The position numbers and the translations under genes are program-made. Below are positions 40,414 through 60,118 of a stretch of 64,000 nucleotides of DNA, piece after piece. The notes under the pieces were generated by a model. That model saw nothing but the letters and a program-made list of their open reading frames with translations, had not been told where the DNA came from and ran no database searches. How positions within the stretch are numbered: position 1 is the first letter of the stretch; each line of letters starts with the position of its first letter. Source of the stretch: Alopecurus myosuroides (taxonomy: Eukaryota; Streptophyta; Magnoliopsida; Poales; Poaceae); contig CM054058.1 of NCBI GenBank assembly GCA_028641055.1, forward strand, positions 82,192,020-82,256,019, written 5' to 3'.

Positions 40414-41293
40414 TGTCGGGGGGTTACCCCCGAGTAGGGTAAAGGCAGGTGGTAAAGGCAAGGTCAGAATAGATGTTTGGTCGAGTAGCCGCCTACCCGG
40501 TAAACTGCTACCCGGTCGACTGCTACTCGGTCTTACATGAAAGATGACCAGAAGAAGGAATCAAGCAAGTTATATCCGTTCGAGTAGAAGAGTTGGCCCG
40601 AGTAAAACTGGCGGGAACCTACTCGGGCCAGAAGTCAAAGGAGCCGTTCTGACACAGGATCCCGCGTATCCTGGGTCCGTACTTGGCACTATTCACACCA
40701 CTGTTCATCTGGGGCCGGCGTGCCTGACAGTGACAGTGTGGAAGCAGGCGGTCGCAGGATAAGGGGGCCCTACTCTGTGTTCGTCACAGTGATAACAGAC
40801 TGAACACTTGGTTTTGCCCAACGACTTTCCGGACAGGACAAGATTAGGAACCAAAGCTGTCAGCGGGAACTCGGAAGAAGGACGATGTGCACACAATGTC
40901 GACACTTGTCCGTATCTGGACGTATCCGGCTGGGCACCATGTACGTATATAAGGTTCCCCGCCGCCTCCCGCGCGAGGGACGACGTAGGAACCACAAGTT
41001 CTTGACCTAGATTCTTGACCTAGTTCATCACGTAGAGAAGAGTGGCTACTCGGTAGCAAGAACACTTGTACTGTGGCTACTCGGTGAGACATCGGAATAT
41101 ACAAAGAAAGGCAGGAGTAGGGGTTTTACCTCATCACGAGGGCCCTGAACCTGGGTAGATCGTATTGTTTGCAGTGTTTAGTTCTTACCGCACGCGGCTA
41201 CTCGTCGCGTGATCCCTCCCCGAGCACCTCCAGCGTCCTTCGTCCCCACATCTTTAGCCATCCCATGGCATCTGCCGTGACACCACCACGACA
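40414..41293 (+). repeat. Element C 5' LTR
   Basis: 880 bp from TGTCGGGGGGTTACC to CCACCACGACA. It holds many copies of CTACTCGG or CTACCCGG. A TATA box (GTATATAAGG) lies near 40944-40953. The primer binding site starts right after it at 41294. Confidence 0.85.
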
Positions 41294-41814
41294 GTTGGCG
41301 CCCACCGTGGGGCTACCAGCGGCGCTGGCTGGAGTTTCTGTTTGGACGGGATCTTCTTCAGCGGAGCGCGTAGTCTGTGGCCTTGTCCACAGATTCGGCT
41401 CCTTCGACTTCGTCACTGACAATGCAGGCGACTTCGGCGGCAGGGCCATGCCGGAGGGCGGCACGGTGATCTCCTTCGGCTCGCACCTCGTCTACGTCGC
41501 CACCGCCATCGTCAACGAGTTTCCGGAGGAGGTGTTGGTGGCAGAGGATCCTCCTGCTGTCATCGCTGCTCGCGGAAGGCCTACGCGCTTTTCTGCGAAC
41601 AGCGCTGAGGTGATGGTGGCCGGCCTGGCTGCGAACGCCGGCAAGAGTGCCGCTGGCGCTGCGGTCATCATCGACGAACCTGCTGGCCCAAGTGCTGGCG
41701 GGAAGACCCACAAGCCCTATGAGAAGCCCTGCAACCTTCCTCTCTCCACTACTCCGACCATCCCCGCGTCTGCGGGAAGAGTTGGCATGCCACCTCCCAC
41801 CGACCTCGAGCTCT
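41294..41814 (+). pseudogene. gag: Element C gag, first part
   Basis: An open frame, Ala/Gly/Pro-rich, runs from the primer site into the CACTA1 insertion. The first ATG after the primer site is at 41448 (MPEGGTVISF). An earlier ATG at 41262 lies in the LTR and is a less likely start. The frame ends at 41814 (TDLEL) and continues at 53979 once CACTA1 and one copy of its TCT duplication are left out. I recognise it as gag by position and by the typical Tat gag continuation, not by a catalytic motif. Confidence 0.55.
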
Positions 41815-41839
41815 CACTAGTAGGGAATGGCTTATAGCC

Positions 41840-42165
41840 ACCAGTATACTGCTGGCCAACAAGCATTTCTGTTGCCCAGCGCTAACAGCACTGGCGAACA
41901 GAAATATCTGTTCGCCAGCGCTATTAACACTACCGCTGGCGAACCACACCTCCTGTTCGCCAGCGCTATGGACGGGCCCCACCTGCACGCGCTACAGCCG
42001 CTGCCCTATATTAGCGCTGGCGAACAGGGCAAAGTGTTCGCCAGCGCTACGCTCACCACCGCTGGCGAACAGGTGCTGCTGTTCGCCAGCGCTAATATGT
42101 GGGCCCAGCACGCATTTTAGCGCTGGCGAACAGCAGCACCTGTTCGCCAGCGGTATTCCGCAGAT
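41840..42165. repeat. CACTA1 left subterminal motif array
   Basis: Repeated GCTGGCGAACA and its reverse complement TGTTCGCCAGC alternate, often as close inverted pairs (for example near 42061-42092 and 42120-42151). Such arrays are the binding sites of the element's own DNA-binding protein in En/Spm. The pairs could form hairpins. Confidence 0.85.
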
Positions 42166-42625
42166 CTAGCCATAAGTGGCACCCCCACCACCCACTTTCC
42201 CCTCCACTCTCTCTTCTTCACCTTGTCCCCTCTTCTCTCTCTAGCTCGAAATTATGCCAATTTCTCCACCCTCCTACTCTATTTTGAACCAACTAAATTT
42301 ATTTTAGTTGGTATATATATGTTTATCTCCCTCCTAACACCATTTCTACCCCAAATTTTCCCTCCCTAGCCATCTAGATCTAGAATTACCCCCTTTCTCT
42401 CCAAAGCTCCAAAATTCTCCGGATATCATCGTGTAGCCATCTATTCATTTGAGGTGGGATGAATGATAATATATAATTAAATGAGTTTGTATATAAATTT
42501 TGTCCGGATACACGCGATATGCAATATGTGTGAAATTTCACCGGATTCAACAATGGTCGTGTGATGGAGACGATAAATGCATGTGTGCGCAATTTGTTGT
42601 GGAATGAAATTGAGTAGCCAACTAT
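42166..42625. promoter_or_regulatory. CACTA1 leader region of the transposase gene
   Basis: A pyrimidine-rich stretch (CTCTCT, CCCTCC) lies next to the left motif array, then AT-rich sequence. No coding frame. By position it should contain the transposase promoter and untranslated leader. Confidence 0.45.
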
Positions 42626-42858
42626 CGCCGGAATGTTGATTCATTTCCGTCTCGGCACAGTTTGGCACTCCCTAATAACCTCCTATTTGTAGGAAGGTCA
42701 TGCCGAATTTTTTCGTGAATACGACATGAAGTGAAATTTTTGATATGAAAATGAGTTGCCACTTTGCCGGAATGTTGATTCATTTCCGTCTCGGCAAATT
42801 TTGGCACTCCTCTAACCTCCAATTTGTAGGAAGGTCATGCCGATTTTTTTTCGTGAAT
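42626..42858 (+). repeat. CACTA1 leader module, two copies
   Basis: Two copies (42626-42720 and 42766-42858) of a ~95-bp module start GCCGGAATGTTGATTCATTT and end GGTCATGCCGA...TTCGTGAA. A third copy is at 49412-49500. The modules end 67 bp before the transposase ATG here and 128 bp before the second gene's ATG there. Confidence 0.8.
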
Positions 42859-42925
42859 ATCGAAATATATATATATATATTATGTTTGGTTCTAATATTA
42901 ATTATATCGGCGCGCGCTCTCGTGC

Positions 42926-45900
42926 ATGCGACATATAATGGTGGTCGTTAAGAGTGAACGTGTCGTGAATAGTTACTTGAGACACGCGACAGAAGACATG
43001 TTACAAAATGGCCGCAAGGAGATACGATGTCCATGTCGAAAGTGCAAACTAGGGGGCTTGCTCAATCCCTTTACCGGAGACTTGCTCAGTCACCTCCTAA
43101 GGTATGGTTTCATGGATGGGTATAACAGTCAGTGGGTAAGTGATGATGAAGATGATGAAGTCCATGGGGCGGCGGCGGTAGGAAATGATGTGCAACAGGA
43201 CAATAGCAACGATCGACTAGAACTACAGCAGGACCAACTACAGCAGGACCAAGATCAGCCTCATGACCCCGCACATGATCATGGAGAAGATGTTGAACAA
43301 GACGTGGAAGAAGATCACGAGGACACAGGGACACCCCTAACGGAAGTTGTGCGTGACCCTCATCTGAAAGAACTGCTTTTGAGAAAGACGACTAACTCGA
43401 TATCTGCTGCTAGAGAGCAATCGAAGCTGGCGCAACTAGAGATAGACTCGAAGACACCGTTGTATGCAGGCTGCGGTCCGGGAGAGTCCCGCCTGAGAGT
43501 GGCCCTCGATGTTCTGCAGATGAAGGCGAGATACAAATGGAGCGACATAAGCGTCGATGCAAGCCTGCAATACTGGCACGATGTCCTTCCAGAGGGCAAC
43601 ACCTGTCCTAAAAGTTGCGACGAGGCCAAGAAAGTCGTGTGCCCCTTTGATTTACCTCACGAAAAATACCATGTGTGCATCAACAATTGCTACATTTATC
43701 GGAAAGTGGACGTGAACAAAACCATTTGTCCAGTTTGCAGCGCCGCTCGATACAAGAAAGGGAAGAAGAAAGCTCCTCGGAAAGTTGTGTGGTACTTTCC
43801 GCTCATTCCCCGTCTGCAACGGTATTTCGCGGACCGCAAGGAAGCAGAGCTCATGCGCTGGCACGCGAAAAGGAGGAATAAAGTTTTAAAAGATCCAAAT
43901 CGGAGTGAAAAAGTAATTCTGACACATCCTTCAGATGCAAGTCAATGGAAAGCAATTGACTGTGAATATCCAACGTTCGGGGCGGATGCAAGGAACATCA
44001 GGTTGGGTGTGAGCACCGACGGACTCAATCCGTTTGGCAACCAGAGCAGCACCCATAGCACCTGGCCCGTGTTTGTATGGATGTACAACATCCCTCCCTG
44101 GTTGTGCATGAAGAGGAAGTATATTCACATGAGTATGCTAATTCAAGGGCCGAAACAACCAGGCAACGACATCAATCTATACCTGAAGCTGCTTAAAGAT
44201 GAGCTGGAAACGCTATGGGCTGAGGAAGGGGTGAACACATGGGACGCCTTCGGTGAACAATATTTCCCAATGAGAGTTGTCTTACTCTGTACGGTTCACG
44301 ACCTACTAGGCTACGGATATGTGGCGGGCCAGGTGTGCCACGGACATAACGGTTGCGTGAGGTGCATGGATGACCCCACGTTTATGCAACTTCCGAAAGA
44401 TCCTGCGTCTTCGAAAACAGTTTTCGTTGGCCATCGAAGGTGGCTACCCAACAAAGACCCGTGGAGAAGGCGAGGAGACCTTTTTAACGGTGAGGATGAG
44501 CTCCGTGGACCTCCACGTAAGAGGTGCGGCGAAGAAATCTACAATTTGCTGAATGATTGGAAGGAATGCCCAGAGCCGGGAAAGAAGCAAAAGGCGCCAA
44601 AACCGCTTCTGGATGTATGGAAGACGAGGTCGGTGTTTTGGGACTTGCCATACTGGCCCATTCTCGATACGACTCACTGCCTTGATATGATGCATATCAC
44701 GAAGAATGTGTTTGAAAGTTTGTTTGGCACGCTGCTCAACATGCCGGAGAGGACCAAAGACGGGGTGAAAGCAATAAACGACCTGAAATATTTTGGTATT
44801 AGGGTAGATCTTCAGGGGGGACGCCCGGATGATGACGACGGCGATCAATCGTGTGATGAGGAGATGGATGGTCGCAAGGCCAAAAGGGTTAAGAGGAATG
44901 ACTATTACTGCCCCCCTCCTGCTTCACTCTTAGTCCGGACGAGATCACAAAATTGATGATGTGCCTTCTCGGAGTCAAAGTCCCTAGCGGTTACTCAGGG
45001 CTAATAAGCAGATTCCTCGACGCGCAGAAACAAAAGTTTAGCGGGATGAAGTCTCATGACTGTTACGTGATGATGACGCAGATACTTCCGGTTGCGATCC
45101 GCGGAATAATGGACAAACACGTCCGGGAAACCCTGTTTGGCCTCTGTAACTTCTTCGACGTTATATCTCGAAAGTCGATCACGGGAAGCAGATCTCAAGG
45201 CTGCAGGAAGAGATTGTCGTGATACTATGCGAGCTTGAGATGTACTTTCCACCATCATTCTTTGACATATGTGTTCATCTGTTGGTCCATATCGTGGACG
45301 ATATCATCTATCTCGGGCCGTTGTTCCTGCACAACATGATGCCGTTTGAAAGGATGAATGGGGTCATCAAAGGATATGTTCGCAACAGAGCTCGTCCGGA
45401 CGGAAGCATCGTTCAGGGCTTTCTCACCGAAGAGTGCATCTCTTTCTGCACGAATCATATGGACGTGGAGGACCCAGTTGGTCTGCCCAGAAACAAGCAC
45501 ATTGGCAAGCTCGATGGAGTAGGTCACAAAAATGGACGTAGAGAAGTGCATGTGGATCGGGCTTGTCGACGCACCGACTTTAACAGGGCAAACTTAGTAG
45601 CTCTCCAACACATTGACATGGTCGATACTTGGCTGGAAAAACACAAGAGCTCGATTATGAAAAAGTACAGTGAACAAGGCAAGCGGAGGACCGAAGGAGA
45701 AATAATCAGAGAGCATAACTCCACTTTCTTGCGTTGGTTTAAAGATGTGATCGTCGCTAATCCACCGCCAAGGGATTGTGCGAAAAATAAACTATTGTAC
45801 GCCTTGGCACATGCCCCAGCTCCCAACCTAGCGACGTTTCAAGCATATGATATCAACGGGTTCACTTTCTACACAGAGGAGAAAGACAAAACTTCCGATT

Positions 45901-46448
45901 ATCAAAACTCAGGGGTAACGATGGAATCCTACACCGGTGACAAAAAGTTAAGATACTACGGAAGGATCGAGGAGATATGGGAGCTTAACTACTCTGGAGA
46001 GAAGGTGCCTATGTTCCGCGTCAGATGGGCTAGGATGTCGACCGTCAGAAAAGAAGACCAATACTTTACAACCATGGTTATTCCCGAAGCCGGAACCTCA
46101 TCAAGCGCGAATGTCACAGCGCAAAATGAGCCATGGGTATTGGCTAAACATGTGTCCCAATGCTTCTTCATAACAGACCCCGCAAGGCCTAGCCGTGTTG
46201 TCGTGAGGAGAGGGAAAAGAAATATCATCGGAATGGATGGAGTCGTTGATGAGGACGAATTCGACACGTTCGGCGACCCAAATATTGACGATGATCAAGA
46301 AGATGATGATGATAGTCATGCAACATACACAACAAGAAGAAGCAGAACAACGCTACCTAGGCATGGTCTTCCATTCATAAGAAGAAGTCATAATGTGGGG
46401 TTAAATTATGCAACTGCGACCAAAAAAGGCAAAAAGATCAAACACTGA
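42926..46448 (+). pseudogene. tnp2: CACTA1 TNP2-type transposase, two frameshifts
   Basis: This is the transposase of CACTA elements, which cuts at the CACTA tips. The N-terminal association domain has CPCRKCK and LRYGFMDGY (about residues 30-75). The Transposase_21 region follows, with NTCPKSCDEAKKVVCPFD, CPVCSAARY, STDGLNPFG, PPWLCMKRKYIHMS and VCHGHNGCVRCM. Next are the DUF4218-like part (GLCNFFDVI, LCELEMYFPPSFFD, GSIVQGFLTEECISFC) and the DUF4216-like part (YYGRIEEIWEL, CFFITDP). One-base shifts break it near 44925 (before SPDEIT) and near 45184. The remaining frame is open to 46448. The first ATG at 42926 may not be the original one. About 1,170 codons in total. Confidence 0.88.
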
Positions 46449-46559
46449 GAAACTATGTATATATCTGTCTTCTAATTGTATGCGACGAAACTATGTATAT
46501 GCATGGATCAACTGGTCTGATATCGATGTGCACTTATTATAAATTTAATGTACCTTGTT

Positions 46560-47262
46560 TTGTATTTCACATGTGTGGACTTATTAGTAGAAAACAAAAA
46601 TAAAACAACTGAAGGAAATAGTAAATAAAGGAAAACAACTAAAAATAGTAGAAAACATGAAGGAAATAATGGAAAACATAAAGAAATATAATAAAAAACA
46701 TGAAGGAAATAATGGAAACAAGATAAAACATGAAGTAAAACAACTGAAAATAGTAGAAAACAAAAATAAAATAAAAGAAAACATGAAGGAAATATTAGAA
46801 AACCTAAAGGAAAACAACTGAAAATAGTAGAAAACATGAAGAAAATAATGGAAAACATAAAGAAATATAATAGAAAACATGAAGGAAAGAATGGAAACAA
46901 GATAAAACATGAAGTAAAACATCTGAAAATAGTAGAAAACAAAAATAAAACAAAAGAAAACATGAAGGAAATATTAGAAAACCTAAAGGAAAACAAAATT
47001 TAACAACAGAAAACAAAAAGAAAACAAGAGAAATCATGAACGAAATATTGGAAAAAAAATAAAACATGAAGGAAAATAATAGAAAACAAAAGAAAACATG
47101 AAGGAAATATTAGAAAACCTAAAAGAAAACAAAATTTAACAATAAAAAACAAAAAGAAAACAAGATAAAACAAGGGAAATAATGCATGGAAAACAATAGA
47201 AAACAATAATAAACAAAAACAAATCAATTTAAATAAATAAAAATAAAACAGTAATGTGTGTC
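46560..47262. repeat. A-rich degenerate tandem repeat in CACTA1
   Basis: Built from AAAACATGAAGGAAATA-like units. A higher-order period of about 180 bp is visible (46671 onward repeated at 46850 onward), then one of about 134 bp. The minus strand gives long Phe/Ser/Leu-rich open frames here, which are composition artefacts. Confidence 0.75.
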
Positions 47263-47302
47263 TCAATTATTATAAACATAAATCAATTCAAAAAAAAAGG
47301 GT

Positions 47303-47422
47303 AGCGCTGGCGAACGTAGCTTCTGGTTCGCCAGCGCTATGTTACCGCTGGCGAACAATCCTTTGTTCGCCAGCGGTAGGATAGCGCTGGCGAACCAGGA
47401 GCTATGTTTGCCAGCGGTAACC
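47303..47422. promoter_or_regulatory. CACTA1 internal cluster of the terminal motif
   Basis: Six copies of GCTGGCGAAC / GTTCGCCAGC in three inverted pairs, of the same type as at the element's ends (for example TACCGCTGGCGAACAA and its inverted partner at 47343-47378). It lies between the transposase gene and the second gene, just before a GC-rich leader. It probably marks the second gene's promoter. Confidence 0.7.
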
Positions 47423-47857
47423 CCCCACTGAGAGGTACACAGGGCCGGGACTTAGCCGTTTTTCTCACGAATCGATTCAATCGCACGCGCACTACTCGAT
47501 CCTCTCTGTCTCCGGCGAGTGCAGGTACCGGCGACCACCGCGCGTACGGCCCTCTCCCTAACGCCCTCCATTGCTCCACGCTCCCTACCGCCCCTCCACT
47601 CCCTCCACCGGCCCTCTCCCTCTCTCGCCCCAACCTCCATCGACGCCGGCCACTCTCCATCGACGCCGGCCCGCTGCTCGCTGCTCCTCCCCCGGTTCTC
47701 CCTCCCCCGCTGCTCCCTCCTCCTCCCCGGCCCGCGGATCCCTCCTCCTCCCCTGCGGCTGCCGCACTGCCTCTGCAGCGGCACCGCCGGCGTGCTGCCC
47801 GCTGTTGGCCCCTCTTCTGCCACGCACAGGAGGTGCTCGACGGAAGTTCTACAGGTA
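47423..47857 (+). promoter_or_regulatory. GC-rich, pyrimidine-rich leader of the second CACTA1 gene
   Basis: CCTCC-rich sequence with open frames on both strands but no recognisable protein. It ends at a good splice donor (CTACAG/GTAAAT, about 47851). I take it as an untranslated first exon; a captured host first exon is possible. Confidence 0.45.
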
Positions 47858-49411
47858 AATTTTCAGCGATCATCTGTTTATTCAAACACATATATCGACA
47901 TATACACACTTTGGTCATCTCTGCTTGTGTATCTACATTTTTTTACATTGAAAATAATGTTGTCCATTGTGCAGTCTTTTTCCATGAGCAATGTTTTGAA
48001 CTTTATGTACATTCTCCTTGTTTTGATCTCTCTGCTAATCAGTTATGGCAATCTTTTTTGGCTTCCATGTACAGATTAATTAGTTAAAACTTTTAAGTGA
48101 CATCTGATAATATCTGTTCAAGTAGTAGTAATCTGGATCCCACTTTGTGTGACATATGACCAACTTTATTATATAACTAGCATTGTGCCTGTGCATTGCA
48201 GAGGATGCAAGCTAAATGGATAGTGCTCACAAACATGAGAAACAAATTAGTACTGTATATCTTATACCAGTGGAACATGTTAGTACAATTTTAGTTCACA
48301 ACATCTGAAACAAGTTGGGTTCACCCCAATTTTAGTCCTATTACATGTTCCACCAAATCGCATTCCAGTGTTTGTTTGCATCATACATCAAATAGCATTT
48401 GATTCCCTAACTATTTGCATAGAACCAGAGCTACCAAGCCATAGATTTGATTCCTTTTAAAATGATAAAAATGGTAAATGCACTCTCTGTAGTGTTGTTT
48501 TGGGTGCCATTAGGTAATGGATCTGCCACCACTGCTTTCCTGTTAATTGGCCTTTCTCACTGCAGCAGATCACTGGTAATTGGCCTTTCCTGTTAATTTT
48601 CCTGTTAATTAGCATCACTGGTAAGTTATGATTCTTGCAAAAATCCAAGAAAAATAAATTTGCTTGATCACCGCGTCAAATCTGCCAATTGTTGTATCTA
48701 TAAAGTAACAATCAAAGTCTCAGACAAATACTAGGACAAATTTATTATCAAATGTGTTATGGACTTGTTTAAAAAATGTGTACTTTAAATATGAAGAAAT
48801 TGTTTCATTTCTGTTTGAAATCTGAGGTAATGAACACAAGGAGATGGTCCTGTAGTTCTCTGTCATTACTTCCATGTACTGTTTTCTTATATAGATTTAA
48901 GTTCATTCACTTCATAACAGTTTTAGTATCAGATAATTATGAAAGGAGATGGTCCTGTAGTTCTCTGTCATTGAATTAATGCTACTCTTAGAACCAAAAA
49001 ATTTGTGGCTGTTTCAAAACAGAAATCATAGTTGGTGAGCTATGGTGTGGTGTGTGTGTTGTGGTGTATGTGGTGTGGTGTAGTACCTAGTGTTTTCTCT
49101 TAGTACTCAATTGTTAGCAATTTATATGCATGTCCTGTCTTGATATCTAAATATGAATCTGGATATCTCAATTGTTTTTTATGGTTGGTGATGGTTGGTG
49201 TGATGGATGGTGTGTATGGATGGTGGTGATGGATGGTTGTGATGGATATGGCGTGGTGATGATGGATGGTGGTGATGGATGGTGGAGATGGTGTGTGGTC
49301 GTGTGGATATGTGCCCACCTTCGTGTGGATGACGATGATAATATGAGGGGTGGGATCTATTATATGAGGGGTGGGATTTTATGTGCAGGTACCCCACGTG
49401 AGTCCCTATTT
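47858..49411 (+). other. Probable leader intron of the second CACTA1 gene
   Basis: AT-rich, without a gene. It contains a 29-bp direct repeat (AGGAGATGGTCCTGTAGTTC at 48839 and 48945) and a TGG/GATGG low-complexity tract at about 49180-49310. The rest shows nothing I recognise. Confidence 0.4.
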
Positions 49412-49500
49412 GCCGGAATGTTGATTAATTTCCGTTCCAGCAAATTTGGGTACTCCATTTGTGATATTTTTAACAAGGTCATGCCGAAATTTTCCGTGAA
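49412..49500 (+). repeat. CACTA1 leader module, third copy
   Basis: A diverged copy of the 42626/42766 module: GCCGGAATGTTGATTAATTT ... GGTCATGCCGAAATTTTCCGTGAA, lying 128 bp before the ATG of the second gene. Confidence 0.75.
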
Positions 49501-49628
49501 GTTTGGCATGATCTTTGCTAAAAATATCACAAATTAGAGTGTCCGAGAAATTTGGACTCATATGGGGTACATCGTCTAAATTGTAGGATTTGTTGAACTT
49601 ATTTCGGGTTTTCTCTCCTTCATTAGAT

Positions 49629-52600
49629 ATGGCTCACAACGACGAGGCGGGTGGTTCTGGTCTCGGACACGGCGGAGACAACGACGATGCGTGGCTTTCT
49701 ATGCTAAGCGCGGGAGGCGGACCCGTAGATCCGCACCCAGATCTAGAGATGGAGGGCGACGATGCAGACGACGAGATGGACGAAACCGTTCGCCAGGAGC
49801 TAGAGCCACACAACGATACATCGGGCGCAGAAGGTGATCAAACCGGTAGTGGCACCGGTGATACCGCCTCCGGTAGCGAGGCGGCGGCTAAGCGCAAAGA
49901 GAGGCGGCACAACATGCTCGCCACCATGCGGGAAGAGTTCACAGAAGTGGACCCCAAGAGCGGTGCTCCCCTCGAGCCAGAGAGTTATGCCAAGGGCTAT
50001 GGAAACCAGATAGGCTGCATAGCTCGAGACTTCGGCAACGTTAATATGGAGCACCTCAGAGCTAAAGAAACAAGGCTAATGCCGCCCTGCTGATTGAGAA
50101 GCTGCACACAAGGTACAAATTCCCGGATCCTTACGACAACCAGGACCTGAAGAAGAATCTGGTCAACTCCTTAGCACTGGGAAAGTTCGCCAAGGCGTTT
50201 ACGACTTGGAGATCCAGTTTGCGGGAGATGCTTGCGAAGGGTAAGGATTTTGATGAGATCCATAATATGTGGCCCTCCATTTCCGAGGAAGACTTGGCCC
50301 AATTCAAGATCGACGAACTCAAACAGGAAAGGGTGGCGCTGAGTAAATGGGGGAAAGAACATCGAAAAAAGAACATTGGCCCTCACAATCTCGGAAGCCG
50401 GGGTTACCTTGGGAAGCAGAAAGTATGGGAAAAGGAGGATTCGAAGAGAGAAGGGCCGAACCCGTTTGACAAGATCACCGACCCGCAGGTGAGAAATTTT
50501 GTCAGGGCCCATTATAGGGAAGATCCCAAAAAGCCCGGCGATCTTGTGTTGAACGAGAAGGTCAAGCTGCTCGAGAATAAGTATCTCGAGGAAGAAGAAA
50601 AAGAACGCCTATCTCAATCTGACGGGGGGTCCTCGGCGACGACGAACAAGGACCCGTATGACACCCCGTTCATTAGGGCGCTTAACGCGATGAAGGGAGT
50701 GCCCCTTGACAAGAAGCCGCATCGTGGCCATGTGCATGGCCTCGGAAAGGGTCATCGGCATGCGCACTACTACCCCGACACCAAGGAAAAGCGTAAGGAG
50801 CGGAACAAGGGCCCGGAGAAGACGGTCGACGAGCTTGTGAACGAGAGGCTCAATGAGCTCCTCCCTACCATCTGTTCGACCGTCGCTCAGTCCTTAGCGC
50901 CGTGGATGCTAGGTGGAGGACAAGGGCCGCTCCCGCAGATAAACATAGCCCAAATGGTGCAGCCAGCGCCGCAGAACATGGCCCCCGTCGTGGCGCCGCA
51001 GAACGTGGCCCCCGTCGTGGCGCCGCAGAACGCGGCCCCCGTCGTGGCGTCTGCTGCGCGGAACGAGCCGGCCCCCAACCCTCAGCCGGAAGGTCGCAAA
51101 GATCCGTCGCCGCCCCGCCACATCTCTTCAACGCCGCCGCCGACACTTAGCGGTCCATCCCCCTTGTCCGAGCTCAATGCCCTCACGGTAATTCAACGTG
51201 CACTGCTTAATTATATATTATGACTTGATTCGTGACGGCATCAGTCTCTAACAACGATCGCGCGATGTTTCGCAGGCCGACGAGACGGGATGCACATTGC
51301 TCCTTAATGTGAACGGCGAGTTAAAGGACGTCGCCAAAGGAAAAATCATCACACCTCTGAACCGCGTATCCCACGGCGTTCGTATGCCCGAGGACGTGTT
51401 CAGAGTGACATTAAGTCGGGTGCTCCCTGGTTGCGGTGCTCTCGAACCTCCGAACCAACCACCCGCAGCCGACAGCGAGTTGAACCTGGAGCAATGCTTG
51501 GTTTTGCCATTGACCTGGCCGAAATCACTAATTCGTTTGGAAAGTACTCCTGCCAACACTCCAACACCGGTCCAGGGGTCGGGGCACCCGAGCCAACACA
51601 AGGATTTCTCACCTGCAAAGTCCGTGCAGCACGACGGCGATGATGCTGAAGATGAGAACCGGAATGACTACCTCGTCGACGATCCTTACGAGGGGGCGCC
51701 CGGCCTGGATGATCTTGATCAACTTCTCTTTCCAGCGGAGGAAGCGGATAAATATCGATGCACAAAGCGTCTTTTCTCTTCTCAAGAGCCGGCAGTCCCC
51801 GAGCAAGAAGTCATCAGCCAGGATGCCCTCAAAGAGGTGGTAGCGGATGTATTTCATAAGAGTCAGCCTAAGAAGACGGCACGGAAAAGAACTAAGAAGA
51901 GTTCTGCCGTTGCATCGATGAGCCAACCGGTGGAGGGGACCAAGTCTAAGCCGCAGACAGGACGTGTATTGGACAGGATACCCATAACCGACTGGCATCA
52001 GATCCATCAGTTGGGAAAACCGATGCTTCCGCCGAGGTTGGTCGCCTTGCTGACAGGTGATATGCGTAGCGTCCATGACGGTGTACTATATATGGAGGAG
52101 ATGCTTCTGAAAGAGAAAAATCCAACGCTGCCGGTTTTGGTCGCAAAGGTGCCATCTACGGCGGGATTTGTCACTGAAGGCAACGCAAACAAGATCATCA
52201 TTAGATTTGACGACATTTTCCGTATGTTCCACATGAAATCACTCCACTCGTCAATCGTCCGTCTGTTTACGCTCAGCTTGGCGCATCAGCTATCCGTAGA
52301 GAATGTCAGAAACATCGGGCTAGCAGACCCCTACTACATGCACGACATGTACTTGAACAACCCCAGGGGTAGGGCAAATGCGACAAAGTACCTCGAACAA
52401 GTGTTGCTCACTAACCATATGAACAAGAGGATCACCCTCGTGCCCTACTTTCCTGAGTAAGTTATATTTCCCATCTTTACATAAGTTTGCGCATATATAA
52501 TTTTTGAGGATTATATATATGGACTCTCCTGTTTTGCGCAGAAACAAATACGGCACCCTCATCATGCTCTACCCGAGAGACGCGCACGCAGTATATCTCG

Positions 52601-53175
52601 ACTCCGGGAGTACGATGAAGGAGAAGAACTACACCCTCATCAAGTCTGTTCTCAATGATGCTATGGATGGCTACATCAGGGGGGAAGGATTCTGCGACAG
52701 GAAGAAACAAATTCAAGGCAAATATGTGTTCAGACACAGAACAGAGTTTCCCTGCCCCAAGCAGGCGCCAGGCGGCCAAATGGAGGCATGGTACCTCATC
52801 CAACACATGACGGAGATCGTGAAGGACCAACATAGTCTGCAATACATGTCTGCTGTGGACAAATGGTCTCGCAGCATCGTGGAATGGTCTGATGCTGAGT
52901 ACAGACAAAACTTTGGTCGCATCCAGCGCAAGATCTGCACAATCATCTATAAGGATGTAGTAACTGCAGGATCTACCTTCCACTGGAACCCCCCACCATC
53001 TAACAATGAGTTGCGACAATGTGTGCTAGAGCAGACTGACGAGAGACCATTCAACTCGTTAAAAGGTGCTCTTCCGTTCCCGCCGAGAAGAAACAGAAGA
53101 TCACAACATCGAGGAAGAAATGATCGACGGTATGTATTCGATTCGTTACGAATTGCTCCTAATAAGAACTTGTGA
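49629..53175 (+). pseudogene. CACTA1 second gene: Transposase_24 / Ulp1-like protein
   Basis: Exons: 49629-51187, 51276-52456 and 52542 to about 53110-53175, with GT-AG introns and matching phases. The N-terminus is Gly/Asp/Glu-rich. A Transposase_24-like helical region follows (KFAKAFTTWRSSLREML to FVRAHYREDP), then a Pro/Ala repeat (APQNVAPVV) near 50970-51050. The C-terminal part (exons 2-3) resembles the Ulp1 (C48) protease fold of CACTA-encoded proteins: the Asp strand AVYLDSG is present. The His-Trp pair is replaced by Tyr-Gly (KYGTLIML), and the Cys after Q-x-P-G is Glu (QAPGGQMEAW). One frameshift lies near 50071. The C-terminus beyond 53080 is uncertain. Probably the element's second, DNA-binding or regulatory protein. 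Confidence 0.75.
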
Positions 53176-53689
53176 TTTCCTTTGCCGGTCTAATGCTTTT
53201 ATCTTGGTCTACAGAGAGATGAAGAAGTGGACGGCGCGCTGGCCCTAGCGAAAGATCGCAAGCGGAGGCGGAAGCTAAAGCGGAGGCGGACCGTATATCT
53301 AGTCTTCTTTGCGATTGATCTCTATATCGCGCGTACGTTGCATAGATGTAGTAGTCATACCTTTGTAATCGTTGAACTAATTAGATGGCTATATTTTGGG
53401 TTCGAAATCTTCCGACATAAACGTGTTATTGAGATCAATGTGTTGTATTCGTACTTATGAGAATTGGATATGGATGCATATGTATAGATGTGTTAATTTC
53501 GTTATCGATGTGTTAAATTCGTTATGGATGGATGCATATGTATCTATGATTTATCGATGTGCTATCAGTGATTTATATGTGTGAAGTTTATAAATTATAG
53601 AATTTGAATGTATTTGGACCTGGGAATATACAGAATCAGAATATACAAAATGTTATACAAAAAAAAGAAAAAAATACAAACCTGGGAAA
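53176..53689. other. CACTA1 3' flank of the second gene
   Basis: AT-rich, with short repeats of TGTTAATTTCGTTAT and GATGCATATGTAT near 53475-53550. There is no coding frame. It probably holds the last intron or 3' UTR; a GT at about 53127 and CTACAG at 53214 could define one more short exon ending at a TAG near 53248. Confidence 0.4.
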
Positions 53690-53950
53690 CTTACCACTGG
53701 CGAACAAAGTCCCTACCGCTGGCGAACAGTACCACTGGCGAACAGGTTGCCTACCGCTGGCGAAGCTCTACCGCTGGCGAACAGAGCATCTACCGCTGGC
53801 GAACATAGCGCTGGCGAACAAGGCTTTGTTTGCCAGCGGTAACATGCACTACCGCTGGCGAAGTGATGTTCGCCAGCGGTAACCTGCTACCACTGGCGTG
53901 GTAGCGCTGGCGAACACATGTTCGCCAGCGGTAGCTGAAAATTGTTCGTC
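53690..53950. repeat. CACTA1 right subterminal motif array
   Basis: About ten copies of CTGGCGAACA or its complement, mostly preceded by TACCG or TACCA and in both orientations near the tip. Counterpart of the left array. Confidence 0.85.
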
Positions 53951-53978
53951 ACTGGTAGCCCTTTTCCTACTAGTGTCT

Positions 53979-54596
53979 TGAGCATGAAGGAGCAGCTCGA
54001 CAGGGAGCGCCAGGAACTCATTGCAGAGCAGGCGGAGTTAGAGAAGGTTAGACTTGAGCTTAGTCTAGACCAGATCAAGTACAACAAGGCTCACGGCTTC
54101 ACGCAAGTCGCTAGGAGAGCTAGCAAGGTAGGTCCTACTCGGCGCAACTTAGGCGCCGAGATGGCGACCGTTGGAGAGGTTCCTAGTCAGTCTGCCACCG
54201 CAAACACTTCCACTAGGCCTAGGTACAGCACCCCCGCTAAGACACTTAGAGCTGCAGAGGCCGTAGCCGCCGAGTTGCCTCGACTCGACGGCGACGCGCG
54301 CATTAGGCAACAAGAAAGGCTCAACGAGTTGGTGTTGGAGGCTGCTAGGCAGAATGAGGAGTTCCGGAAGGCCAACCCGGGTGCTGGCGGCTCGCAGGTG
54401 GTGCATTCGCATGCGGCCAGATCTGTTGATCAGGCCTCATCTCCGCATCCCAGACGCGAGAGGGACCGCAGTGGCACCTCGGGTAGAAACAGGCAACTGC
54501 AGGTGTACGACCCGACTGTCGCCGCGACAGTCCGGCCAGAAACACAACTCTGCTGGAGCATGCTTTCAAGCCCATAAAGCTCATAGCCAAACGCGA
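53979..54596 (+). pseudogene. gag: Element C gag, second part
   Basis: Continues the frame interrupted by CACTA1: LSMKEQLDRERQELIAEQAE begins a Glu/Leu/Arg-rich coiled coil, followed by a Ser/Thr/Pro-rich segment and LDGDARIRQQERLNELVLEA. This coiled-coil stretch is typical of Tat-type gag proteins. A frameshift is likely near 54500-54540, since the frame in use ends at 54577 while another continues to the CACTA2 border. Knuckle and protease parts are absent because of the later deletion. Confidence 0.55.
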
Positions 54597-54860
54597 CACT
54601 ACTAGGGAAAAGGCTACCGCAGGCGCACCAAATTAGGCTACCGCAAGCGAATTGCAGTTCTCCTGGGACCACGTCGCCAGCGGTAATGGCTTACCCCAGG
54701 CGAATAACACAATGCGCCTGTGGTAAGTTCGCATACCCCAGGCGAATACACCTTGTGCGCCTGGGGTAAAACTCTTACCTGTGGCGAACAAGCGCTGTGC
54801 GCCTGGGGTACAGATGCGTCTGGGGTACTGTGTACTGTTCGCCTGGGGTATGGTTTTGCT
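54597..54860. repeat. CACTA2 subterminal motif array
   Basis: Repeats of ACCCCAGGCGAATA and the inverted TGCGCCTGGGGTA, several in opposed pairs, plus variants (CTGTGGTAA, GCGTCTGGGGTA). One CGCCAGCGGTAA close to the tip is of the CACTA1 type. The motif shares GGCGAA with CACTA1 but has CCAG in place of GCTG before it. Confidence 0.8.
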
Positions 54861-55103
54861 GTATCAAAAAATAAAAGAAAAACCAAAATAACAGAATAAC
54901 AGGAAAATGACAGAATAACAGCAAAATGACACAATTAAGTTTTAGAACATAAATATTTTCGATCATCAACACATAGTCTCGATCATCAAGACATAGTTTA
55001 ACAAAATTACATAGTCTCGAAAAGAACCATGCTACTAATAAATCCAGGAGTTAGCTAGTGAGATGGAAATAATTATTTGTTCTAATTTAATTAAACTCGT
55101 CAT
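54861..55103. other. Between the CACTA2 terminal array and the B3-like gene
   Basis: AT-rich with short repeats (AATAACAG, ATCATCAACACATAGTCTCG). This would be the 3' UTR of the B3-like gene. No gene is seen. Confidence 0.45.
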
Positions 55104-56126
55104 CTACAGCTCTAGCGGGCTGATGTAGTGGATGACCATCATCATGTCCAAGTTGGGGACATCACTATTCCTCATGGTGATCAGAATAGCTCGTCCAACC
55201 GCCATACCAACTCTTGCGGAATGGAACCGCCTCCATGCTTGAGAGTTGAGGATGACCCGACCATCAGCATTATCCCTGGTGATCGGAACTGCGGTGACAT
55301 GTCCGGATTCTCCACGGCGTACTCCAATGGTACCGGGCTCCATGCCAGCACTGTCCGCTACCGCCATGGGTATTTTCTAGAACACAATTCCAAGATAGAA
55401 TAAAAGCACAAAGTCACATACCGGCCACATTATAACATAAGCAACTACAGGAATAAGAAAGTGTTAAGAAACATACCATGACATGTCCATTGGAGATGTT
55501 AGTATTGGTGATGCGATGCACGAAAGGAAAACCGATGTAGCTATCTATCTCGGCAAGTTTCTGAAGGACACGGTCCTTCTCAATCTCGCTAAGATTCGCT
55601 CTTTGAGCAACCACCACATGTTTCCATGGGTCCTCCTCGTCCATATCATCCTCAGTGTCCATATCATCCTCAGTGTCCTCCTCACTCCCGGCATTCTCGC
55701 TCGCAATCCCGCCCATATACACAATTTTGATACGAGGTTGTGGTCCTTCCATTGAGAAGTGAATGTAATCACTTCCGCTTAAATTGTACGTGGCGATGAG
55801 AACCTGCAATGCTTGCCCGCAGAAGTAGGTCTTCGTTCTTTCTTTTTTCACTCGAAGATTGTAGGTGGTCCCGTGAACATTGAAGTCCACATTATTGCCA
55901 ACTAACTGGTTGAACTCTTGGCGAATATTGCATGGAAGAATCTAAAAAAGAAATATAAAGAATAAACACAAGTCTCAAGCTAGATAGTAAAACGAAAGAA
56001 CAAGTTAACATAAAAAGAATTGTTAATTACCAACGAATCAACGTCACCGTCGTGGAGCTGAAGCATAAAAGAAGTCCCACTGAATCGTCCTTCGGCACAT
56101 CGGGACCGACATACGCCGCAAGCCAT
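55104..56126 (-). CDS. CACTA2 second gene: protein with two B3-like DNA-binding domains
   Basis: Three exons on the minus strand: 56126-56031, 55941-55477 and 55376-55104. Both introns are GT-AG, all junctions are phase 0, and there is no stop before the TAG at 55104. The product is 277 aa. Domain 1 (about residues 18-107) follows the B3 pattern: SLILP, NIRQEFNQLV, VHGTTYNLRV, then GSDYIHF. An acidic linker (EDTEDDMDTEDDMDEED) follows. Domain 2 (about 170-275) has the same layout, ending RVILNSQAWRRFHSARVG and MVIHYI, and intron 2 lies inside it. B3 domains bind short DNA motifs. The gene lies between the terminal array and the transposase, so it probably binds the element's own motifs. The B3 call is by eye. 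Confidence 0.72.
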
Positions 56127-56206
56127 GTTCTATTAAATTAAGAAAGTACACATAGAGGTTAGAGGAGCATAGATATCACAAAACAAAGACAAATGGCAGC
56201 ACCTAC

Positions 56207-56410
56207 CTCTAGTAGTATAATAAGGCAATTGACAGCAGTACAAACGAAATGGAACCTGTCGGAGAGTTTAGGTGATACTTCCAACAGTACACTTTCTTAT
56301 TTAATCTCACAATTCACAATTCACAATACTCTAGTAGTGTAATAAGGCAATTGACAGCAGTACACACGAAATGTTGTTATTGTGCGTGTTTTTACTCCTA
56401 TTTAATCTCA
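56207..56410. repeat. Tandem duplication upstream of the B3-like gene
   Basis: About 120 bp, repeated: CTAGTAGTATAATAAGGCAA near 56210 and its near-copy at 56330, both followed by GACAGCAGTACA, and ATTTAATCTCACAATTCAC at 56299 and 56401. Confidence 0.75.
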
Positions 56411-56454
56411 CAATTCACATTCCTTTTTACTAGTGAAACCTGTCAATTCACATT

Positions 56455-56601
56455 CACAATTCTTAGCCTTTCGGCTTGCCCACCTGTGTGTGGTGCTGTG
56501 TTTTGTTCTACGGCTTTTGCCGTTTGTAAGGAACCTGCTAAAACTTTGTTGTTCGTGATTTCAATGAAATCGGGGGGCAGCCCCTTTTAGTCTAAAAAAA
56601 A
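56455..56601 (+). mobile_element. 3' tail of a LINE-like retroposon
   Basis: It reads TTTGCCGTTTGTAAG, then GATTTCAATGAAATCGGGGG and CCCCTTTTAGTCT, ending in eight A at 56594-56601. This resembles the 3' UTR end of Triticeae L1-type LINEs. It is 5' truncated and no coding part remains; target duplications were not resolved. Confidence 0.5.
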
Positions 56602-56639
56602 TGCACTACAAAGATCCGCTAAGAGCACTGAATCCTGGA

Positions 56640-56935
56640 GATATAATGCACATTCCTCTGGATCGATCCACGACGACGGGAGCACCGCGGCCACCAGAAG
56701 CAGGCGCACATCCTCCACAACGCCGACGGGAGGGCCGGAGTGGGCTGGGATGGAGGGGGGATGGGAGGGAGAGGGGCTGGCCTGGATCAACGACGACGAC
56801 GACGACGGAGTGGGCGACGGCGGAGTGGGCGACGACCTGCTCTGCTCCTCTCGACACTGGCGACGGCGGAGGCGTGTGGGTTCGTGTGGGTGCGGGTGCG
56901 GGTGAGATCTGGTCACTTAGAATACTAAAGCATTG
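56640..56935 (-). promoter_or_regulatory. GC-rich leader of the CACTA2 second gene
   Basis: GC-rich with overlapping open frames; the minus-strand one is His/Pro/Ser-rich. By position it is equivalent to the GC-rich leader in CACTA1: next to an internal motif cluster and upstream of the second gene. Probably an untranslated exon rather than a protein. Confidence 0.4.
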
Positions 56936-56950
56936 AGCTAAGCACATTGG

Positions 56951-57236
56951 CACCGGTTTCTAATACAAACCGGTTCGAAAAGGATCTGTCCACTGGGCCC
57001 CACACTCTGCCGCAAATGGCCTCATGGCCTTTAGGACTGGTTTGTGGTACCAACCGGTTCGAAAAGGATCTGTCCACTGGGCCCCACACCCTGCCGCAAA
57101 TGGCCTCATGGCCTTTAGGACCGGTTTGTCGTACCAACCGGTTCTAAAGGATCTGTCCCCTGGGCCCCCTACCTACCCGCAACAAATGGACGCAGGCCTT
57201 TAGGACCGGTTTGTGATACAAACCGGTCCTAAAGGC
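56951..57236. repeat. 84-bp tandem repeat with CCGGTT palindromes
   Basis: Three and a half units with 84-bp period (CGGTTC at 56971, 57055 and 57139). Each contains CCGGTTTGT..TAC.AACCGG and GATCTGTCC.CTGGGCCCC. The CCTTTAGGACCGGTTTG pattern is that of a further CACTA family's subterminal repeats, so this may be a nested remnant. Confidence 0.75.
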
Positions 57237-57237
57237 C

Positions 57238-57408
57238 TCCGGCACCGCAGGCGCGTTTCGTAGATAATGCGCCTGCGCTAAATTTCGTAGGATTTTGGTT
57301 TGCGCGGTCCCACATGGCATTACCCCAGGCGCATGTCCTGTCAAAAGCGCCTGTGATAAAGATTACCCCAGGCGCATTTTCTCGATGATGCGCCTGTGCT
57401 AAGATTTT
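57238..57408. promoter_or_regulatory. CACTA2 internal cluster of the terminal motif
   Basis: Three opposed pairs of the CACTA2 motif (GCAGGCGCG/GCGCCTGCGCTAA; ACCCCAGGCGCATG/GCGCCTGTGATAA; ACCCCAGGCGCATT/GCGCCTGTGCTAA). It lies between the transposase gene (ends 57651) and the second gene, as in CACTA1. Confidence 0.7.
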
Positions 57409-57650
57409 CTAAATTACACTGCCCCGCGGCCTGGGACACATCGAGCAATACGAATGCTATAATATGTGGCTCCCCCACGTTGGTTTTCACTTAAAAAATA
57501 CATACATATGAAAGTTAACATGTGCAAAAAAAAATTAATGTCGCATCGAGCGTAAATAGATTGGTTTAGCGAGATACCGCAAGTGTTTCTCTCTAAAAAC
57601 ACATTGTACATATAGCTATTAGCATGTTATATCGCGAGTATTTCCCTCTC

Positions 57651-60118
57651 TCAACTTTTTGTCACAATATTAGTCTTGGCTTTCTTGGTCGATGTTGAAT
57701 ACGTGACCGCCATATTGTGACTTCTTCTTGTGAATGGAAGACCTGCCCTAGGTAGTGTGGTCCTGCTTCTTCTTGTCGTGTATGGTGCATCGTCTTCACC
57801 GGGTTCTTCCATCATCGGGTCTCCGACTAAGCCGTCGAAGTCCTTCTCATCGGCGACTCCATCCATTCCGACGAGGGCCCTTTTTCCTCTCCTTACGACA
57901 ACACGACTAGGCTTTGCCGGGTCGGTTATGAAGAAGCATTGCTCCACGTGCTTAGCCAATACCCAGGGCTCATTTTGCGCGGTGGGGTTCTTGGACTTGG
58001 GTTTGTTGGCTTCAGACATCGACATAGTGGTGAAATATTCGTCTTCTTTCGTGACGTTTGTAGCCCATCTGACATGGAACATCGGCAGCTTTACCCCAAC
58101 GTAGTCAAGCTCCCAGATTTCCTCGATCTTTCCGTAGTATCTTCTAACCTCTTCGCCCGTGTAAGATTCCATCGTTATAGACGAGTTTTGATAGTCGCTA
58201 CTTTTGTCTCTTTCCTCCGTGTAGAATGTGTACCCATTGATGTCGTATGCTTGATAAGTCATCAGATTGGGCGCGGGGCCATATGACAAGGCCAATACAA
58301 TTTTATCTTTCTCACATGTCATTGGCGGGGGATCGGCATCAATCTGCTTCTTGAACCATGTCGCGAAAGAGGAGTTGTGTGCTCTAAATATCTCATCTTC
58401 CGTCATCGGCCTGCGAGCACTGTTTTTTATCGCGGTTTTGTGCTCTTCTATCCAAGGGTCGACATCGTCGATGTGTTGTAACACTACTAGGTGGGCCCTT
58501 TCAAAGTCGGCTCTCCCACCACATGAGTCCGCGTCCATTACCCTTTTGCCAGTGTTGTGGCCTACCCCCATGAACCTGTCAAGGTGCTTGTTCGCGGGCA
58601 AACCAACAGCTGGCTTCTCATCGCCTAGGAAATTCTTGCAGAAAGAGATGCATTCTTCGGTGAGAAATCCCTGGACAATGCTTCCATCCGGGTGTGCCCT
58701 ATTACGAACGAATGATTTGATGATCCCGTTCATTCTTTCTAACGCCATCATGTTGTGCAAGAATGCCGGCCCAAGATTGGTGATATCGTCCACGATATGG
58801 ACCAAGAGATGTACCATAATATCAAAGAAGGCAGGTGGGAAATACATCTCAAGCTCGCATAGGATGGTGACGATCTCTTCCTGCAGCCTTCCGAGTTTCT
58901 TCACGCTTATCGACTTCCGAGTGATGACATCGAAAAAGTTACAAAGGCCAGTGAGCGTTTGACGGACGTGCGGTTCCATTATCCCTCTGATTGCAACCGG
59001 AAGTATCTGCGTCATCATCACGTGACAGTCATGAGACTTCATCCCGCTGAAGATTTTTTTCTCCGCGTCTAGGTATCTGCTTATCAGCCCCGCGTAACCT
59101 AAGGGAAATTTCACTCCGAGGAGGCATGTGAATATTTGCGCGAGCTCGTCGGGGCTTAGAGTGAAGCAAGAGGGTTTCAGGCGGTGAGTTTGGTGTTTCT
59201 TAGCCGTTTTCCGCTTGCGGTCGTCCATCTCCTCCACCCCATCCTCGTCCTCCTCCGTCTGTTCACGCGTAGAAGGCGGTAAGTGAAGCTCCCTCCTGAT
59301 ATTCAGGGCCATCAGGTCGTATCTTGATTTTGGCCCGTCTTTGGTCCTATCTGGCATGTTGAACAGGGTGCCAAGCAAGCTCTCACACACATTCTTCGTG
59401 ATATGCATGACATCAAGGCAGTGAGGCACTCCGAGGATTGGCCAGTACCGCAAGTCCCAAAACACGGACCTCCTTTTCCATACCCCCAAGAGCGGTCCTT
59501 CTGGCGGAGGACACTTTTTCTCTCCTCTCTTCCGCTTTTGTACCTTTCCCGACGGAGGACACGTTTTCCAATTCTTCAATAGAGTATCGATCTCTTCTCC
59601 TCTTCTCTTGCGTGGAGGTAGATCGAGCTCATCTTTACCGTTGAACAGGTCTCCGCGCTTTCTCCACGGGTCGTTCAGTGGTAGCCACATTCGATGCCTC
59701 ATGTATACGGTTTTAGAAGATCCGGGATCCTTGTGTAGCTGTAGAAACGGGGTAAATTCCATGCACCTGACACAAGCCTTGTGTCCATGGCACACCTGAC
59801 ACGCAATATATCCGTATCCGAGATAGTCCTGCACCGTCGTGATCAGTGCGGCTCTCATACGAAAAGTTTCTTCTTTGAAGGCGTCCCATGTTTCCACCCC
59901 TTCCTCCCACAACGTGTCTAGCTCCTCCTTCAATAACTCGAGATACAGGTTGATATCGCTCCCTGGCTGGGTCGGCCCTTGAATCAGCATACTCATGTGT
60001 ATGTACTTCATCTTCAGACACAACCACGGGGGAGGTTGTACATCCATACAAACACGGGCCAGGTGCTATGTTTGCTGCTCTGATTGCCAAACGGATTGAG
60101 ACCGTCGGTGCTCGCACC
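57651..60118 (-). pseudogene. tnp2: CACTA2 TNP2-type transposase, N-terminus deleted
   Basis: One open frame of 798 codons from 60047 down to 57651, clearly homologous to the CACTA1 transposase: PPWLCLKMKYIHMS, VCHGHKACVRCM, SCFTLSPDEL, MMTQILPVAIRGIM, GLCNFFDVITRKSI, LCELEMYFPPAFFD, YYGKIEEIWEL, CFFITDP. Upstream of 60047 a one-base deletion in a C run shifts the frame. The homology (STDGLNPFGNQSS in another frame) continues to about 60118, where it ends inside the Transposase_21 region. The association domain and first zinc-binding cysteines are therefore lost. The remaining two thirds are undamaged, so the truncation is fairly recent or the sequence young. The region 57411-57650 before it is AT-rich 3' flank. 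Confidence 0.88.

What the first reader, a model, noticed from the sequence alone, without database searches (positions are those of the whole stretch)
41815..60118. Two related CACTA transposons with different second genes and different terminal motifs
Seen: the transposases share long blocks and the same domain order, and the tips are alike (CACTAGTAGGAAAAGG against CACTACTAGGGAAAAGG). CACTA1's arrays use GCTGGCGAACA and its second gene is a Transposase_24/Ulp1-like protein; CACTA2's arrays use CCAGGCGAATA or CCAGGCGCA and its second gene is a B3-like protein. Known: in En/Spm the second protein (TnpA) binds the subterminal motif. Inference: the second gene is a swappable DNA-binding module and the terminal motif evolves with it, giving each family its private recognition code.
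Basis: partly seen in the sequence, partly recalled or inferred. Interest (0 to 1): 0.82.

Follow-up and report, generated by a model that had tools for sequence, protein, structure and literature searches.

The report
Transposons with interchangeable genes and ends
Two related plant jumping genes carry different helper genes and differently worded DNA-repeat arrays at their ends, but other copies in the same genome combine the helper genes and arrays differently, so they look like exchangeable parts rather than a fixed lock and key.

Summary
CACTA1 (41815-53975, TSD TCT) and a truncated CACTA2 (54597-60118, minus strand) share TNP2 blocks and differ in second gene and array motif. (1) Of 8 loci sampled by tip alone, 5 had a second gene, all with CAGGCG arrays: 4 CACTA1-class, 1 CACTA2-class. 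Arrays of L004 and L005 are 90% identical over 398 bp, with nothing alignable beyond. (2) Of 19 divergent CACTA2-class copies, 15 had readable 3' ends: 6 CAGGCG, 8 GTGACG, 1 other. GTGACG copies are not one clade on the second-gene tree (p-AU 5e-7). L090 and L094 genes are 96% identical but carry different arrays. TNP2 of CACTA2 nests among relatives with CACTA1-class second genes. So the second gene is swappable, but the motif does not follow it. 'B3' is unconfirmed; the Ulp1-like domain has lost its catalytic Cys. Which protein reads the arrays is unknown.

The parts
41815..53975 (+). CACTA1, complete element (5' tip - array - TNP2 - internal array - second gene - array - 3' tip)
   Evidence: tips and TSD TCT at 41812-41814 / 53976-53978
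41843..42155 (.). CACTA1 5' terminal array, palindromic TASCGCTGGCGAACA units
42938..46448 (+). CACTA1 TNP2 transposase gene; reading frame broken around 44900-45200
   Evidence: PF02992 E 1.6e-75, PF13963, PF13960; frames
47299..47422 (.). CACTA1 internal array of the same CTGGCG motif, between the two genes
49629..53129 (+). CACTA1 second gene, DUF8039 class with an Ulp1-like C-terminal domain without the catalytic Cys (exons 49629-51187, 51276-52456, 52542-53129; a frame change near 50070)
   Evidence: splice sites and frames; homologues P0002, P0003; profile match to rice P0101
53692..53933 (.). CACTA1 3' terminal array
54597..60118 (-). CACTA2, truncated: 3' tip at 54597, cut off inside TNP2 at 60118
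   Evidence: same tip (up to 2 mismatches) in 29 of 30 family loci
54614..54849 (.). CACTA2 3' terminal array, TACCCCAGGCGAATA / CAGGCGCACA units
55104..56126 (-). CACTA2 second gene, 277 aa in three exons (56126-56031, 55941-55477, 55376-55104), 'B3-like' by eye only
   Evidence: splice sites and one open frame; 150 scored copies of exon 2 at 93% identity or more
56942..57237 (.). 84-bp tandem repeats with palindromic TTTAGGACCGGTTTGT motif, inside CACTA2
   Evidence: CCGGTTTGT present in 29 of 30 family loci
57241..57402 (.). CACTA2 internal array (CAGGCGCAT units) between TNP2 and second gene
57651..60118 (-). CACTA2 TNP2, N-terminal part missing, frame change near 60065
   Evidence: PF02992 E 5.5e-45, PF13960 E 5.2e-28; 56 scored copies at 99-100% identity, 42 of 56 with a 1179-aa open frame

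Best explanation
These are two families of one grass CACTA lineage with a modular layout: tip-array-TNP2-internal array-second gene-array-tip. SHOWN: one array type occurs with either of two unrelated second genes, and one second-gene class occurs with at least three array types; sequence identity stops at the inner edge of the 3' array; the 3' tips stay nearly constant; in four of four divergent B3-like copies read upstream of the gene, the array there is of the same type as the 3' array; and one B3-like copy is a 3.8-kb element with no room for TNP2. INFERRED: the arrays, which flank the second gene on both sides, are where modules recombine, so second genes are replaced and TNP2 can be dropped. 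INFERRED: because the motifs keep one loose template (about TASCSNNGRCGMAYN in palindromic pairs) and the 3' tips are fixed, mobilisation probably depends on TNP2 plus tips and array layout, and the second protein either tolerates motif variants or does something other than reading a private motif.
For: Loci found by tip alone (the first 8 listed of 687 exact tips): 4 of 8 have the CACTA1-class gene (L002, L003, L004, L007), 1 of 8 the B3-like gene (L005), all five with CAGGCG arrays; 3 of 8 have no second gene or TNP2 match within 1.5 kb. L004 vs L005: 90% identity over 398 bp from the tip, nothing alignable beyond. L004 vs L002: 98.9% over 1517 bp with different flanks, so the combination moves as a unit. 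L090 (GTGACG) vs L094 (CAGGCG): 96.4% identity through the gene, arrays not alignable by blastn at 1e-5. L096 (GTGACG) vs CACTA2: 88.8% through the gene, arrays not alignable. The B3-like tree rejects one clade per motif. The TNP2 tree nests CACTA2 among relatives with DUF8039-class genes. Element C2:43706110-43709944 is 3,835 bp with TSD TTA; 1.3 kb of it was not read, too short for a 3.5-kb TNP2. Upstream array type agrees with the 3' array in 4 of 4 (L099-L102; L102 has one exact GTGACG and is assigned by 89% identity to L100).
Against: Motif types are clustered on the B3-like tree (4 of 500 shuffles as low), so some linkage remains. The four CACTA1-class CAGGCG arrays form one clade of their own on the array tree, so that exchange may be a single event. 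The TNP2 of those elements was not identified (search did not complete), so 'the motif follows TNP2' is untested. 5' tips differ between families beyond the first bases. No binding, expression or transposition data. TNP2 loss was shown with its 5' tip in one copy only.
Confidence: 0.6

Rival explanations
1. Private code at fine scale: the second protein does read the motif, but a few residue changes retarget it, so related B3-like proteins have switched motif several times and a CACTA1-class protein has come to read CAGGCG.
For: Motif labels are clustered on the tree. In Spm/En, TNPA recognises the subterminal repeats (passages of PMC2613891). VANC proteins and their motifs are proposed to coevolve in VANDAL elements (passages of PMC5735166).
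Against: Arrays beside different second-gene classes are homologous by descent (90% over 398 bp), not convergent. L090 and L094 have 96.4% identical gene regions with different arrays. Identity stops at the array edge.
Confidence: 0.2
2. The B3-like gene is a passenger: a host-derived gene carried inside CACTA ends (Pack-CACTA style) with no role in transposition.
For: A 3.8-kb element without room for TNP2 carries this gene. CACTA elements with identical subterminal regions and unrelated interiors, including captured gene fragments, are known (passages of PMC8195511).
Against: In 24 of 56 scored CACTA2-type TNP2 copies a listed B3-like exon lies 1.5-2.5 kb downstream on the same strand, so it is a standard part of that family. 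Pooled pN/pS of exon 2 is 0.55 over 30 copies, weak because the copies are young. A host homologue was not seen, but the only search returned one protein in all.
Confidence: 0.2
3. Composite artefact: second gene and array belong to different, nested or adjacent elements.
For: L069 turned out to be the 3' end of another copy about 9 kb from L023, so neighbouring ends do occur.
Against: Each combination occurs in several loci with different flanks (4 for CACTA1-class/CAGGCG, 8 for B3-like/GTGACG), the gene-to-tip distance is nearly constant within a family, and the three complete elements checked have TSDs. No complete CACTA1-class/CAGGCG element was read.
Confidence: 0.04

Closest known systems
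En/Spm (CACTA) of maize and Tgmt* of soybean, with the TnpA/subterminal-repeat coevolution proposal of PMC2613891
   Same: CACTA tips, 3-bp TSD, TNP2 transposase, second gene, repeated subterminal motifs; the same idea that second protein and motif diversify together
   Different: Here array and second gene are recombined: one array with two unrelated second genes, one second-gene class with several arrays; an extra internal array lies between the genes
Grass CACTA elements with DUF8039/Ulp1-like second genes (Lolium P0003, P0005; rice P0062, P0101)
   Same: CACTA1's second gene is this class (36% over 99% of the query to P0003; hhalign E 1.9e-8 to rice P0101)
   Different: In CACTA1, L002-L004 and Lolium P0003, P0005, P0034, P0037 the catalytic Cys position of the Ulp1-like domain is replaced, while rice P0062 and P0101 keep it
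VANDAL/VANC anti-silencing systems (Mutator-like, Arabidopsis; PMC5735166, PMC10398659)
   Same: An accessory gene beside the transposase and family-specific clustered motifs in the element
   Different: Different superfamily; motif and protein are proposed to coevolve there, here they recombine; no binding or methylation data here
Pack-CACTA / Tpn1-type elements (as described in PMC8195511)
   Same: Identical ends with different interiors
   Different: Here the interior that changes is the element's own second gene, in high-copy families, not assorted host fragments

Membership tests
CACTA (DTC) superfamily | CACTA termini | tested here: met
   41815, 53975, 54597; 687 exact CACTACTAGGGAAAAGG tips in the genome, 0 for the reversed control pattern
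CACTA (DTC) superfamily | 3-bp target-site duplication | tested here: met
   TCT (CACTA1), ATT (intact CACTA2 relative), TTA (TNP2-less copy); not testable for the truncated CACTA2 itself
CACTA (DTC) superfamily | TNP2 transposase (PF02992) | tested here: met
   E 1.6e-75 and 5.5e-45; the 3.8-kb copy has no room for it
CACTA (DTC) superfamily | subterminal repeats | tested here: met
En/Spm TnpA (functional role) | second protein binds the element's own subterminal motif | not testable with these tools
   no binding data; genomic pairing argues against a class-specific motif
B3 DNA-binding domain | match to a B3 sequence profile or B3 structure sequence | tested here: not met
   no B3 hit in Pfam or among PDB sequences at E up to 10
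B3 DNA-binding domain | B3 fold | tested here: inconclusive
   model of exon 2 only, pLDDT 50; helix/strand order resembles B3 (recalled), no significant Foldseek match
Transposase_24 (PF03004) | profile match | tested here: not met
   not found in the CACTA1 second gene at E up to 1 or 10
Ulp1/C48 peptidase | homology to a C48 domain protein | tested here: met
   hhalign probability 95.4, E 1.9e-8 to rice P0101, which carries PF02902; no direct Pfam C48 hit and no PDB hit
Ulp1/C48 peptidase | catalytic Cys | tested here: not met
   CG of rice (LCGYY) aligns with EA/DA in CACTA1, L002-L004 and Lolium P0003, P0005, P0034, P0037 (catalytic positions recalled)
Ulp1/C48 peptidase | catalytic His | tested here: inconclusive
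   HW of rice aligns with KY in CACTA1 and, by eye, MY in P0003; P0034 has a His one residue away, and the position was not read in L002-L004

The most novel reading that the evidence does not exclude
Second genes of grass CACTA transposons travel as array-flanked cassettes, sometimes as TNP2-less transposons of their own, and are exchanged between TNP2 lineages by recombination in the arrays, so these elements form a combinatorial system in which no second protein owns a motif.
Probability: 0.35. Interest if true: 0.75.

Novelty: new variant of a known kind. Interest (0 to 1): 0.55.

Why it matters
Coevolution of the second (TnpA-like) protein with the subterminal repeats has been proposed for CACTA elements (PMC2613891, passages). 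One plant genome holds what look like natural swaps in both directions, some recent (96% identical genes with different arrays), which makes the question testable: L090/L094 and L004/L005 are ready-made pairs for binding tests. It also adds a second-gene type with no recognised domain, and an Ulp1-like domain without its catalytic Cys, to a gene that PMC4423477 (passages) calls of 'yet unknown function'.

Tried and rejected
Tried without result: Pfam, PDB-sequence and Foldseek searches for a B3 domain. PDB search with the Ulp1-like profile. Text search for tip sequences in papers (3 papers; none holds the four longer tips like those of the window). L098 as the 5' end of L096: unrelated DNA. 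L069 was fetched as the 5' end of a CACTA2-family copy but is the 3' end of another B3-like copy. Linker peptides of Lolium fused proteins as signs of internal arrays: only P0003 looked array-like, by back-translation by eye, so it is not used as evidence. Selection: pooled pN/pS 0.55 (B3-like exon 2, 30 copies), 0.66 (exon 3, 29), 0.50 (CACTA1 exon B, 30), 1.09 (CACTA1 exon C, 30), all on very similar copies, so weak; the value for CACTA1 exon A used a wrong frame (30 of 30 copies with stops) and is discarded. One search timed out. Rejected: motif determined by second-gene class; the CACTA1 and CACTA2 motifs being unrelated.

Rows dropped or thin: 4 of 19 divergent B3-like 3' ends (L071-L074) had no readable tip and array. 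L017 (no exon 3 found) and L069 (only exon 3) were left out of the 18-row tree. Rows L070, L077, L080 and L095 contain stops read as X. Array labels were set before the trees, but a FastTree had been seen before the AU test. In one search, 148 of the 150 scored B3-like hits were typed in (two on small contigs omitted), and both hit lists are capped.
Full report
What is there. CACTA1 runs from 41815 to 53975 with TSD TCT and reads tip - array - TNP2 - internal array - second gene - array - tip on the plus strand. CACTA2 lies on the minus strand; 54597 is its 3' tip, and it is cut off inside TNP2 at 60118. The TNP2 C-terminal parts are 63-65% identical. The motif arrays are real and far above chance.

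The window's genome (G000, 3.57 Gb, unnamed; a grass by inference, since most of the closest named homologues are from Lolium) could be searched. Exact CACTACTAGGGAAAAGG tips: 687, reversed control 0. The B3-like exon gave 150 scored copies at 93% identity or more out of 3409 first-look candidates; the CACTA1 second-gene exon gave 105 scored copies at 95% or more out of 7283 candidates. 29 of 30 B3-like loci end in the same tip (up to 2 mismatches) with different flanks, one of which reads N. An intact CACTA2 relative spans 7,562 bp with TSD ATT and CAGGCG arrays at both ends.

The two motifs are variants of one template. Aligned by eye, TACCGCTGGCGAACA and TACCCCAGGCGAATA share 12 of 15 bases, and 28 of 30 CACTA2-family loci also hold one CTGGCG unit. 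The third type, TAGCCGTGACGCACCA, fits the same frame more loosely.

Test 1: same array, different second gene. Of the first 8 listed exact-tip loci (L001-L008), 4 have the CACTA1-class second gene (pieces 35-51% identical to CACTA1's, longer pieces 50-57% to Lolium P0003), 1 has the B3-like gene (64%), and 3 have no match to either second gene or to TNP2 within 1.5 kb. All five with a gene carry CAGGCG arrays. L004 (CACTA1 class) and L005 (B3-like) share 90% identity over 398 bp from the tip and nothing alignable further in; L004 and L002 are 98.9% identical over all 1517 bp although their flanks differ. On an array tree of 16 rows the four CACTA1-class arrays form one clade, which groups with five B3-like arrays apart from the seven others, CACTA2's included (100/99; midpoint-rooted drawing). 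So this exchange may be a single event.

Test 2: same second gene, different array. A diverged B3-like protein (P0001) found 151 matches in the genome. I read the 3' ends of 19 of them: 15 had a tip and array, 8 GTGACG, 6 CAGGCG, 1 another type (L070); 4 did not. On an 18-row protein tree the GTGACG copies need 3 changes at the fewest (2 forced by well-supported branches), and one clade is rejected (p-AU 5e-7; CAGGCG 2e-6); the labels are still clustered, 4 of 500 shuffles being as low. L090 and L094 are 96.4% identical through the gene, and L096 and CACTA2 88.8%, with arrays that blastn does not align at 1e-5. In these two pairs and in L004/L005 identity stops about 320-445 bp from the tip, at the inner edge of the array.

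Test 3: TNP2. In a 70-row TNP2 tree (quick method, SH-aLRT support) CACTA2 falls inside a well-supported clade of 23 rows, mostly Lolium, 17 of which have a CACTA1-class second gene in the same predicted protein. Its sister clade of 4 rows (three Lolium, one unnamed) includes one such, P0052. The simplest reading is that the B3-like gene replaced a CACTA1-class gene in CACTA2's ancestry. In 24 of 56 scored CACTA2-type TNP2 copies a listed B3-like exon follows 1.5-2.5 kb downstream (both lists are capped).

Cassettes. I read about 1.1 kb upstream of four divergent B3-like copies. The array there agrees with the 3' array: GTGACG type for L080, L090 and L092, CAGGCG for L094 (the L092 stretch has one exact GTGACG and is assigned by 89% identity over 123 bp to the L090 stretch). 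In the CACTA2 family, CAGGCG units lie upstream of the gene in 29 of 30 loci. For L090 the 5' tip itself is there: a 3,835-bp element with TSD TTA. About 1.3 kb of it was not read, too little for a 3.5-kb TNP2. The internal arrays of CACTA1 and CACTA2 sit at the corresponding place. I infer that arrays on both sides of the second gene are where modules recombine, and that recombination between the 5' and internal arrays could drop TNP2. This was not observed directly.

The proteins. CACTA1's second gene reaches no Pfam family's cut-off, but Lolium relatives carry DUF8039 (PF26133, precomputed). Its C-terminal domain matches a rice Ulp1-type second gene (hhalign E 1.9e-8). The catalytic Cys position is replaced in CACTA1, L002-L004 and Lolium P0003, P0005, P0034 and P0037, and kept in rice P0062 and P0101; loss of the His is likely but less certain. 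CACTA2's second gene is one open frame of 277 aa over three exons; B3 membership was tested and not met by sequence, and is inconclusive by fold.

Literature. PMC2613891 (passages) suggests that subterminal repeats and tnpA-like exons may coevolve; PMC5735166 (passages) and PMC10398659 (abstract) describe VANC proteins and their motifs; PMC8195511 (passages) notes identical CACTA ends with unrelated interiors; PMC8978399 (passages) reports second-ORF domain variation; PMC4423477 (passages) calls the CACTA second ORF of unknown function. My searches of the held library (listings only, apart from the papers above) showed nothing on a B3-like second gene or on second-gene/array exchange; subscription papers are mostly not held.

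Verdict. Whether TNP2, a shared core of the motif, or something else reads the arrays is open.

Noticed in passing
56942-57237: 84-bp tandem repeats with a palindromic TTTAGGACCGGTTTGT motif inside CACTA2, next to the internal array; CCGGTTTGT is present in 29 of 30 family loci. It looks like an array of yet another motif type.
   Followed up: partly
52542-53129: The Ulp1-like domain of the CACTA1 second gene has lost the catalytic Cys position, as have the Lolium relatives inspected, while rice P0062 and P0101 keep it.
   Followed up: partly
46585-47260: AT-rich minisatellite (AAAACA-type units) between TNP2 and the internal array of CACTA1.
   Followed up: no
L070, L087: A more diverged B3-like copy (52% in exon 2) with yet another array and a tip ending TTTCCTTGTAGTG.
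   Followed up: no
L001, L006, L008: Exact CACTA2-type tips with CAGGCG (L001) or GTGACG (L006, L008) arrays and no second gene or TNP2 match within 1.5 kb; 5' ends or non-autonomous elements.
   Followed up: no
41121-41837 and 53939-54577: Open frames on both flanks of CACTA1, gag-like by eye; CACTA1 appears inserted in a retrotransposon-like region. Flanks were not joined or searched.
   Followed up: no
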